Assembly: GCA_024239075.1 (NCBI GenBank)
Contig: JANBVI010000079.1
Span: forward strand, 62,001-126,000
DNA length: 64,000 nucleotides
Origin: Fischerella sp. CENA71
GTDB lineage: Bacteria; Cyanobacteriota; Cyanobacteriia; Cyanobacteriales; Nostocaceae
Direction: 5' to 3'
The notes beneath the pieces were generated by a model. The model searched no databases, was not told where the DNA came from, and saw only the letters and a program-made list of their open reading frames with translations. Below are positions 59,760 to 61,355 of this stretch, in pieces (position 1 is the stretch's first letter; each line of letters opens with the position of its first letter). A program made the translations under genes and the position numbers.

Positions 59760-60112
59760 GGGCAGGAAGCAGAAAGATGTGTATGCCTGTGGCGCTTGTT
59801 TCCTCTGAGAAAAAGAGAGCGATCGCTTTTGATAATACAAATATACTATAAATCTTAAGTAAACATCCACAAAGGATTGCAAAGATATTTGACTCATTCG
59901 TAAGTATTACTAACAATTTTTTTTAGAATATATAGAGAATATTCTCAAGATTTAATAACTCTGAATCTCAGCCATTAAAACACTAACTGGTACCAGAATT
60001 TGCCAATACGAAATATACAGATTTAACTGCACAAAAAAACTGGAATATTGCGTGTTTAACTCATTTTCAAAAATTAATTAAGTACATTCTCTTTTCAGAG
60101 GAGGCATAAACG
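59760..60112. promoter_or_regulatory. Upstream region of the divergent psbA
   Basis: Contains GAGAATATTCTC (59935-59946), a perfect 12-bp palindrome about 170 bp before the ATG, next to AGAATAT (59925-59931). A GAGGAGG ribosome-binding site lies at 60099-60105, with 7 bases to the ATG. Otherwise AT-rich. Confidence 0.45.
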
Positions 60113-61183
60113 ATGACGACAATCATTCAACGTCGAAAAGAATTTGATTTTTCCAATCTATGGGATCGATTTTGCGCGTGGATTACCAGCACTAACAATC
60201 GGGTTTACATTGGCTGGTTTGGGGTGCTGATGATTCCTACTTTGCTTGCTGCTACTATTTGTTTCATTCTCGCTTTTATTGTTGCCCCTGGTGTAGATAT
60301 GGAAGGTATTAGAGAGCCAATTAAAGGTTCTTTGATAGATGGCAACAATTTGATTAGCGCTGGTGTTGTGCCAACTTCTGCTGCGGTTGGCTTGCATTTT
60401 TATCCTATTTGGGAAGCTGCTTCCTTAGATGAATGGCTTTATAACGGCGGTCCCTATCAGTTGATCGTACTGCACTTTTTAATTGGTATTTGGTGCTATT
60501 TGGGAAGACTTTGGGAACTAAGCTATCGCCTTGGTATGCGTCCTTGGATTGCCGTTGCTTTTTCTGCAAATGCCGCCGCCGCAACAGCTGTTTTGCTAGT
60601 TTACCCCATTGGTCAAGGTAGCTTTGCTGACGGTTTACCTTTGGGAATTGCAGGGACATTCCACTTTATGATGGCTGTGCAAGCAAATCATAATATCCTG
60701 ATGCATCCGTTTCATATGTTGGGGGTTGCTGGAGTCTTTGGTGGCGCATTTTTAAGTGCCTTGCATGGTTCTTTAGTCACCTCAACCCTGATTCGCAATA
60801 CCGACGAAAATGAATCTATCAACGCTGGGTATCAACTTGGTCAACAGCAAAGGACTCACAGCTACTTGGCAGGGCATTATGGTTTTTTAGGTCGCCTGCT
60901 CATTCCCCCTTTTGCTAGTCGAAATCACCGCAGTTTTTATTTCCTGCTAGCTGCCTTGCCAACAATAGGTATTTGGTTTGCTGCATTAGGTCTTTGTTCT
61001 GTAGCTTTTAACTTAAATGGCTTTAACTTCAATCACTCTATCTTGGATAGTGGGGGTGCAGTGATTCCCACAAATGCTGATATCCTCAATCGAGCTAATC
61101 TTGGCATACAAGCAATGCACGCTCCTAATACCCATCATTTCCCACTGATTCTGTCTAGCGGTACACCAATTTCAGTAAGTTGA
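60113..61183 (+). CDS. psbA: Divergent ('rogue') photosystem II D1 protein
   Basis: A D1 paralogue of 356 residues with the full five-helix core. Query residue = canonical + 3 up to helix D. Retained: TyrZ (Tyr164), Asp170 (173), His190 (193), chlorophyll His198 (201), iron His215 (218), His332 (336) and His337 (341). Changed: Asp61 to Glu, Glu/Gln130 to Leu, Asn181 to His, Glu189 to Asn, Glu333 to Ala, Asp342 to Ile, Ala344 to Ser, and iron ligand His272 to Tyr (276). So the oxygen-evolving cluster cannot form normally. This matches the rogue/sentinel D1 group. It is not the chlorophyll f synthase group, which has a Gln-Asp pair at 130-131; here it is Leu-Trp. Probable role: inactive photosystem II under special light or low-oxygen states. 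Confidence 0.9.
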
Positions 61184-61206
61184 AAAATTGAAAGTTTCCT
61201 TGTAAT

Positions 61207-61247
61207 CCGTCCTTTGCTTAGATTTTACAGGGGCGGTTTTTTTAAGT
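61207..61247 (+). terminator. psbA terminator candidate
   Basis: CCGTCCT ... AGGGGCGG followed by TTTTTTT. Imperfect stem with a long loop, then seven T. Lies 24 bases after the psbA stop. Confidence 0.5.
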
Positions 61248-61315: not shown

Positions 61316-61355
61316 AAAACCCCAAAGCATAAGCACTTTGAGGGTTAGATTTTAT
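61316..61355 (+). terminator. Second hairpin with T-rich tail
   Basis: AACCCCAAAG and CTTTGAGGGTT pair with one bulge around CATAAGCA, then AGATTTTATTTTA. About 130 bp after psbA; could be a second psbA terminator or belong to a small RNA. Confidence 0.45.

What the first reader, a model, noticed from the sequence alone, without database searches (positions are those of the whole stretch)
60113..61183. Rogue D1 with lost Mn ligands and lost iron ligand His272
Seen: alignment by eye to canonical D1 shows Asp61Glu, Glu130Leu, Asn181His, Glu189Asn, Glu333Ala, Asp342Ile and Ala344Ser, with Tyr161, Asp170, His190, His332 and His337 kept. In addition RSFYF stands where canonical RSLHF carries His272, a ligand of the non-haem iron. 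Known: rogue/sentinel D1 proteins lack part of the Mn ligand set. The His272Tyr change would also disturb the acceptor side, and I do not know whether it is general in the rogue group. A D1 altered at both the donor and the acceptor side would suggest a role other than water oxidation.
Basis: partly seen in the sequence, partly recalled or inferred. Interest (0 to 1): 0.72.

Follow-up and report, generated by a model that had tools for sequence, protein, structure and literature searches.

The report
Rogue D1 missing an iron ligand
A relative of the branching, nitrogen-fixing cyanobacteria carries a spare, probably non-oxygen-making copy of a core photosynthesis protein that has lost one of its grips on the iron atom between the two quinones, a change shared by several close relatives and echoed in a few other branches of the same protein group.

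Summary
ORF 60113-61183 (+, 356 aa) is an intact group-2 "rogue/sentinel" D1. It is not a read error: 7 distinct proteins of an 11-member clade, which includes Westiellopsis and Fischerella, carry Tyr272; one carries Asn; three keep His. In a capped sample H272 is kept in 128 of 139 distinct rogue proteins and 62 of 62 standard D1. The other D1 iron ligand, H215, is lost in 4 further rogues, so 15 of 139 lack one D1 iron ligand, in at least five tree lineages. The gene is under purifying selection (dN/dS about 0.09). The window protein also has Y246H (bicarbonate site; 1 of 201), E244R, F255L, S264A, F265S and S268H. The Tyr-Z pair, R269 and T245 are kept; eight ChlF-type proteins all keep H272. 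Best reading: a placeholder D1 that disables photosystem II at both ends. QB-site changes in rogues were already published; I saw no report of iron-ligand loss in what I searched. Structure and expression were not testable.

The parts
60113..61183 (+). psbA gene for a group-2 (rogue/sentinel) D1 protein, 356 aa
   Evidence: (PF00124, 272.9 bits, over cut-off), tree
60938..60940 (+). codon TAT, D1 position 272: Tyr in place of the iron ligand His
60857..60859 (+). codon CAC, D1 position 246: His in place of the bicarbonate-site Tyr (only one among 201 distinct D1)
60764..60766 (+). codon CAT, D1 position 215: the other D1 iron ligand, His kept
60914..60919 (+). codons GCT AGT, D1 positions 264-265: S264A and F265S in the QB pocket
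60926..60928 (+). codon CAC, D1 position 268: Ser to His, four residues before 272
60602..60604 (+). codon TAC, D1 Tyr161 (Tyr-Z), kept in 139 of 139 rogues
60689..60691 (+). codon CAT, D1 His190 (partner of Tyr-Z), kept in 139 of 139 rogues
59855..60112 (+). upstream stretch conserved together with the gene in 7 of the 10 other clade members, with an abrupt left edge; presumed promoter and leader
   Evidence: no Rfam match; promoter-like hits no more than in shuffles

Best explanation
A working group-2 rogue/sentinel D1. Shown: intact gene, purifying selection, place among rogue D1, loss of several Mn4Ca ligands (E189, E333, D342), an altered QB pocket (F255L, S264A, F265S), an altered bicarbonate site (E244R, Y246H, S268H) and loss of one of the four histidine ligands of the non-haem iron (H272Y), with chlorophyll ligands H118 and H198, the Tyr-Z pair and R269 and T245 kept. 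Inferred: it replaces standard D1 next to the ordinary D2 in photosystem II, probably in darkness or under nitrogen-fixing or low-oxygen conditions, giving a centre that cannot assemble the Mn cluster and passes electrons from QA to QB poorly or not at all, because iron and bicarbonate are lost or badly held. In this clade the iron ligand has become dispensable, so the protein acts as a placeholder that keeps the complex assembled but disarmed at both ends.
For: 139 rogues and 12 standard D1 are parted by a branch with SH-aLRT 100. In a second tree with ChlF and D2 added, standard D1 and ChlF each form one side of a branch (98, 96) and the 43 sampled rogues need two label changes, as expected of a group lying between them. 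Kept in rogues: D342 0 of 139, E333 6, E189 22, F255 9, S264 9; F255L with S264A/G in 116 of 139 rogues and 0 of 62 standard D1. H272 lost in 11 of 139 and H215 in 4 of 139 rogues, 0 of 62 standard. LDLA in 62 of 62 standard, 0 of 139 rogues. Pairwise dN/dS median 0.085 in the clade, 0.120 in 22 H272-bearing rogues, 0.066 in 19 standard D1; IQ-TREE omega 0.084 for the clade. R269 and T245 139 of 139; D1-R269 touches the H272 ligand and T245 touches D2-R265 (PMC13272216, passages). Two ordinary full-length psbD copies in each of two same-genus genomes; no divergent psbD seen in 5 genomes, though in three of them psbD is only in pieces. F265S slows QA to QB transfer in Chlamydomonas (PMC11645544, abstract); D1-Y246 mutants grow poorly and E244A shifts the QA potential (PMC9490181, passages). 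Rogue D1 is transcribed at night in three unicellular N2 fixers and in dark heterotrophic growth of Anabaena variabilis (PMC4582080, section); placeholder role proposed for PsbA4 (PMC9640542, passages).
Against: A pure placeholder needs no Tyr-Z, yet Y161, H190 and Q165 are kept in 139 of 139 rogues, as is H337. Proteomics in Cyanothece found little PsbA4 against much functional photosystem II (PMC9640542, passages), and a rogue psbA is induced in the light by an inhibitor in a non-diazotroph, Acaryochloris (PMC4582080, section), which fits a dark N2-fixation role badly. F265S mutants of Chlamydomonas still grow autotrophically. H272 is kept in 3 of 11 clade members and 128 of 139 rogues. No expression, protein or spectroscopic data exist here for this gene, and no experiment on an H272 mutant was found.
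Confidence: 0.58

Rival explanations
1. Photochemically active variant: the rogue centre still uses Tyr-Z to oxidise a substrate other than water (for example free Mn or a pigment), with electrons returned by recombination or passed to an acceptor other than QB, so the iron and QB site may be lost without cost.
For: Y161, H190, Q165, H118, H337 kept in 139 of 139 rogues and H198 in 132 of 139, while acceptor-side positions F255, S264, F265, E244 are mostly replaced and iron ligands lost in at least five lineages. ChlF is a D1 paralogue with a photochemical job (PMC10535343, passages).
Against: 62 of 333 positions are fully invariant in the rogues anyway, so invariance of Tyr-Z alone is weak evidence. 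The ChlF-type rows here keep H215, H272, S264 and F265 in 8 of 8, so that active atypical D1 did not give up its iron ligands. 7 of 139 rogues lack even H198. No substrate or partner gene is known.
Confidence: 0.21
2. Substituted ligand: Tyr272 (as tyrosinate), or His268 or His246 nearby, takes over the vacant place, so iron stays bound in a changed coordination and quinone transfer is tuned rather than lost.
For: His to Tyr occurs at both D1 iron ligands: H272Y in 7 proteins of one clade and H215Y in 3 proteins of another. His at 268 is four residues away and present in 67 of 139 rogues; the window adds His246.
Against: Asn, Ser and Gly at 272 and Gln at 215 also occur. L161 and L171 have Tyr272 with Pro268 and Tyr246, so neither His is required. 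His to Tyr is a single C to T change, so its recurrence may be mutational.
Confidence: 0.13
3. Relaxed constraint on the way to loss: the gene is a drifting leftover and position 272 changes because nothing needs it.
For: 272 toggles among H, Y and N inside the clade (7 changes in all on the tree); one other rogue has an in-frame stop (L035); the C-terminus is replaced in Westiellopsis prolifica (L039).
Against: Open frames of 355, 356 or 372 aa in 11 of 11 clade members and dN/dS near 0.09, no higher than in H272-bearing rogues. The upstream block is conserved with the gene.
Confidence: 0.07
4. Sequencing or alignment artefact at codon 272.
For: One-base change CAT to TAT.
Against: Same TAT in 7 distinct proteins from 7 assemblies; alignment anchored by R269 and a gap-free stretch.
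Confidence: 0.01

Closest known systems
Group-2 D1 (rogue D1 of Murray 2012; sentinel D1, PsbA4, of Wegener 2015)
   Same: Sequence group, loss of E333, D342 and the C-terminal LDLA motif, changed QB pocket, D1 fold with chlorophyll ligands and Tyr-Z kept.
   Different: Iron ligand H272 replaced by Tyr and bicarbonate-site Tyr246 by His; 128 of 139 distinct rogues keep H272 and 138 of 139 keep Y246.
ChlF (super-rogue, group 1 D1, chlorophyll f synthase)
   Same: Atypical D1 with lost Mn ligands and a modified QB region.
   Different: Window protein has L127 G128 instead of the Q127 D128 motif and keeps H252; ChlF-type rows keep H272 and S264 in 8 of 8; no match to the QD-motif DNA pattern in the window genome or the 4 same-genus genomes.
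Standard and low-oxygen D1 (groups 4 and 3)
   Same: Fold, H215, H118, H198, Y161, H190; 65-67% identity to the genome's own four.
   Different: E189, E333, D342, A344 and H272 present in 62 of 62.

Membership tests
Group-2 rogue/sentinel D1 | D1-type reaction-centre protein (PF00124) of full length | tested here: met
   272.9 bits over a cut-off of 27; 356 aa
Group-2 rogue/sentinel D1 | Lacks part of the Mn4CaO5 ligands | tested here: met
   E189N, E333A, D342I, A344S; D170, H332, H337 kept
Group-2 rogue/sentinel D1 | Falls with rogue, not standard D1 or ChlF, in a tree | tested here: met
   SH-aLRT 100 between 139 rogues and 12 standard D1; ChlF one side of a branch, 96. Rogues were defined here by residues 264 and 342, not by named reference proteins; the dataset includes Crocosphaera watsonii WH 8501 (L058), whose rogue psbA is named in PMC4582080
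Group-2 rogue/sentinel D1 | Lost LDLA C-terminal processing motif | tested here: met
   reads LILS; LDLA 62 of 62 standard, 0 of 139 rogues
Group-2 rogue/sentinel D1 | Modified QB site | tested here: met
   F255L, S264A, F265S
Group-2 rogue/sentinel D1 | Expressed in darkness or at night | not testable with these tools
   no expression data; literature on other species only
Sentinel D1 function | Forms an assembled but inactive photosystem II | not testable with these tools
   Wegener 2015 not held; known second-hand
ChlF | Q127 D128 motif | tested here: not met
   L127 G128
ChlF | H252Q typical | tested here: not met
   H252 kept; one of the 8 QD-motif rows (L272) also keeps H252
Standard D1 (groups 3 and 4) | Full Mn ligand set and LDLA processing site | tested here: not met
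Photosystem II D1 in general | Two histidine ligands to the non-haem iron (H215 and H272) | tested here: not met
   H215 kept, H272Y

The most novel reading that the evidence does not exclude
Within rogue D1 the histidine set of the quinone-iron-bicarbonate acceptor complex, which I take to be fixed in type II reaction centres, has been broken repeatedly (H272 to Y, N, S or G; H215 to Y or Q) while the Tyr-Z donor pair stays untouched, making natural photosystem II variants without a normal non-haem iron site: either a natural iron-free centre or one with a tyrosinate iron ligand.
Probability: 0.25. Interest if true: 0.75.

Novelty: new variant of a known kind. Interest (0 to 1): 0.48.

Why it matters
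The four histidines around the non-haem iron are treated as fixed in type II reaction centres (general knowledge; PMC4582080, passages). A natural, selectively maintained set of D1 proteins without one of them, in organisms that also carry normal copies, gives ready-made test material for what iron and bicarbonate do between QA and QB, and narrows what rogue D1 can be for: a function that needs Tyr-Z but not a normal acceptor side, or only assembly.

Tried and rejected
Artefact at codon 272: rejected, seven distinct proteins share TAT. Shifted alignment with H268 standing for H272: rejected. ChlF identity: rejected. Pseudogene: disfavoured by dN/dS and open frames. A divergent D2 partner: none seen; the four full-length D2 copies of two same-genus genomes keep H214, Y244, K264 and H268, read from the printed sequence because my script's position labels were off by one; in the window genome and two others of the genus psbD is present only in pieces. 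Known RNA element near the gene: none at E 0.5. Promoter and terminator scans: no excess over shuffles. Terminal repeats that could explain the moving gene: none; only a 21-nt imperfect palindrome inside the upstream block and short chance-like repeats inside the gene. A weak psbA hit in PCC 9431 thought to be ChlF was a gapped standard psbA. Structure modelling: tool off.

From loci L001-L238, 238 protein rows gave 201 distinct ones; dropped before counting: L006, L007, L008 (fragments) and L035 (in-frame TAA; its pieces were scored apart and fell under the score limit). L148 is partial and L136 ends in unknown residues; both were counted. Rogue was defined as not having both D342 and S264. 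The trees are quick trees, 53 of 148 inner branches in the first are weak, and the trait columns were not removed. In one search the subject set was only part of the loci fetched (L039, L040, L160 and L247-L262), so 'no shared flank' for one standard psbA (L003) may be a gap in that set. Papers not held: Wegener 2015, Sheridan 2020, Murray 2012. A study of 48 Fischerella genomes found group-2 psbA and has D1 alignments in its supplement (PMC9740203, passages), which I could not view; Tyr272 may be visible there. 'Not seen in print' rests on searches and on the passages and sections named in this report.

Full report
What is there. The window lies in contig C79 of a 7.47 Mb genome. Two of its four same-genus genomes match, by contig position, the named records Westiellopsis prolifica IICB1 and Fischerella sp. 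PCC 9431, so the organism is probably a true-branching heterocystous cyanobacterium or close kin (inference). The genome has four full-length standard-type psbA genes besides the window's (L001-L004) and three psbA fragments (L006-L008).

How general is the change. I collected D1 from 218 genomes of the family, 388 of the order and 388 of the class (overlapping sets) and 80 loci from named species genomes, all ranked by likeness to the window protein or a rogue profile and capped. 201 distinct proteins resulted: 139 rogue-type and 62 standard. H272: 128 of 139 rogue (others Tyr 7, Asn 2, Ser 1, Gly 1), 62 of 62 standard. H215: 135 of 139 rogue (Tyr 3, Gln 1), 62 of 62 standard. No sequence has lost both, so 15 of 139 rogues lack one D1 iron ligand. 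On the tree these fall in at least five places: L126 and L031, in a group of three with the H272-bearing L027; L132; the window clade; L060, L135 and L136 (H215Y with H252F); and L058, Crocosphaera watsonii WH 8501 (H215Q). Position 272 needs 7 changes and 215 needs 2. The window clade (11 proteins, SH-aLRT 98) has Tyr in L005, L039, L160, L161, L171, L172, L181; Asn in L040; His in L010, L011, L164. Either Tyr arose once with later returns to His, or several times; recombination is possible, since Asn150 (codon AAT against CCA or other Pro codons) is also scattered among L005, L040, L010 and L171.

Selection. Median pairwise dN/dS is 0.085 in the clade (55 of 55 pairs), 0.120 in 22 rogues that keep H272 (230 of 231 pairs with usable dS) and 0.066 in 19 standard D1 (136 of 171 pairs); IQ-TREE omega for the clade is 0.084. 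Eight pairs involving other iron-ligand losers give 0.06 to 0.22, three of them with near-saturated dS. The protein is maintained although the ligand is not.

Anatomy of the acceptor side. In the literature the iron is held by D1-H215, D1-H272, D2-H214, D2-H268 and bicarbonate; D1-E244 and D1-Y246 lie at the bicarbonate; D1-S268 borders a proton path (PMC9490181, passages). D1-R269 touches H272 and D1-T245 touches D2-R265 (PMC13272216, passages). QB is hydrogen-bonded by H215, S264 and F265 (PMC10535343, passages). D1-Y246 is called strictly conserved (PMC6492235, passages). The window protein has R244, H246, L255, A264, S265, H268 and Y272, with H215, H252, T245 and R269 kept. E244, F255, S264 and F265 are replaced in 126, 130, 130 and 115 of 139 rogues, in line with the published remark that rogues are altered at the QB site (Murray 2012, via PMC4582080, section). 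A 2025 modelling paper calls the QB region with H252, S264 and F265 structurally well conserved across D1 groups (PMC12096807, section 3.1); at sequence level S264 and F265 are mostly not conserved in these rogues. Y246H is found only in the window among 201. Positions 130 and 147, which hydrogen-bond pheophytin in standard D1, are Leu and Phe in all 11 clade members.

What is kept. Y161, Q165, H190, H118 and H337 are kept in 139 of 139 rogues; H198 in 132; R269 and T245 in 139. 62 of 333 positions are fully invariant in the rogues, so this is suggestive, not proof, of retained donor-side chemistry. D2 in two same-genus genomes is standard, two copies each; no divergent psbD was seen in 5 genomes, in three of which psbD is only in pieces. 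A QD-motif DNA pattern for ChlF matched 20 of 212 family genomes (0 for the reversed control pattern) and none of the 5 genomes of the window's genus; the 8 proteins read from these matches keep H215 and H272.

Mechanism. The simplest account is a sentinel D1: it enters photosystem II beside normal D2, cannot build the Mn cluster, and in this clade also holds iron and bicarbonate poorly, so QA to QB transfer is slow or fails. The step from sequence to failed transfer is inferred; no experiment on an H272 mutant turned up. F265S slows the transfer in Chlamydomonas, though the mutant still grows autotrophically (PMC11645544, abstract). Against the account: Tyr-Z and its partner never vary, PsbA4 protein is scarce in Cyanothece (PMC9640542, passages), and rogue psbA also occurs and is induced in a non-diazotroph in the light (PMC4582080). 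These leave room for a photochemical role. On rechecking I lowered the main reading from 0.60 to 0.58 because of the last two facts.

Genomic setting. The gene and about 250 bp upstream (window about 59855 to between 61169 and 61245) form a block 86-93% alike in seven clade members, while the window's flanks match those of its three same-genus counterparts (L039, L040 with 5 kb, L160 with 1.5 kb each side) nowhere except one 36-nt stretch in L039. Three of the genome's four standard psbA loci do share flanks with fetched same-genus loci; the fourth did not. Within two sister genera the rogue flanks are fully (L010, L161, L171) or partly (L011, L172, L181) shared. In G505 the neighbourhood lacks the gene: homology stops at window 59761 and resumes at 61317 (L265). 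In Westiellopsis the break lies inside the last codons (L039). So in this genus the rogue gene has changed place repeatedly, by an unknown route; transposases near some standard psbA copies of mesophilic Fischerella have been reported (PMC9740203, passages).

Noticed in passing
window 59855-61207; L039, L040, L160, L265: The rogue psbA with its upstream block sits at a different place in each of four same-genus genomes, with abrupt edges, while three of four standard psbA loci share flanks within the genus; no terminal repeats found.
   Followed up: partly
L072, L212, L216, L217, L219, L224, L227: Rogue D1 with H198, the P680 chlorophyll ligand, replaced by Ser (6 distinct proteins, one clade, including Synechococcus sp. 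M44_DOE_062) or Gln (L227).
   Followed up: no
L060, L135, L136: A rogue lineage with H215Y (iron and QB ligand), H252F and E189G together, H272 kept.
   Followed up: partly
L005, L010, L040, L171, D1 position 150: Codon AAT (Asn) against a Pro codon at an otherwise fixed position is scattered over the clade, hinting at recombination between rogue alleles.
   Followed up: partly
L154, L155, L196-L200: A separate rogue subgroup with Lys268, present in G505, a same-genus genome in which no window-type rogue was listed.
   Followed up: no
G000 contigs C78, C20, C50 (psbD) and C9, C4, C64 (psbA): psbD and three further psbA copies are present only as end pieces in the assembly; cause not established, perhaps collapsed repeats.
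   Followed up: partly
L268: A standard psbA in the genome matching Fischerella PCC 9431 holds runs of N and a doubled 3' part, probably a scaffolding fault.
   Followed up: yes
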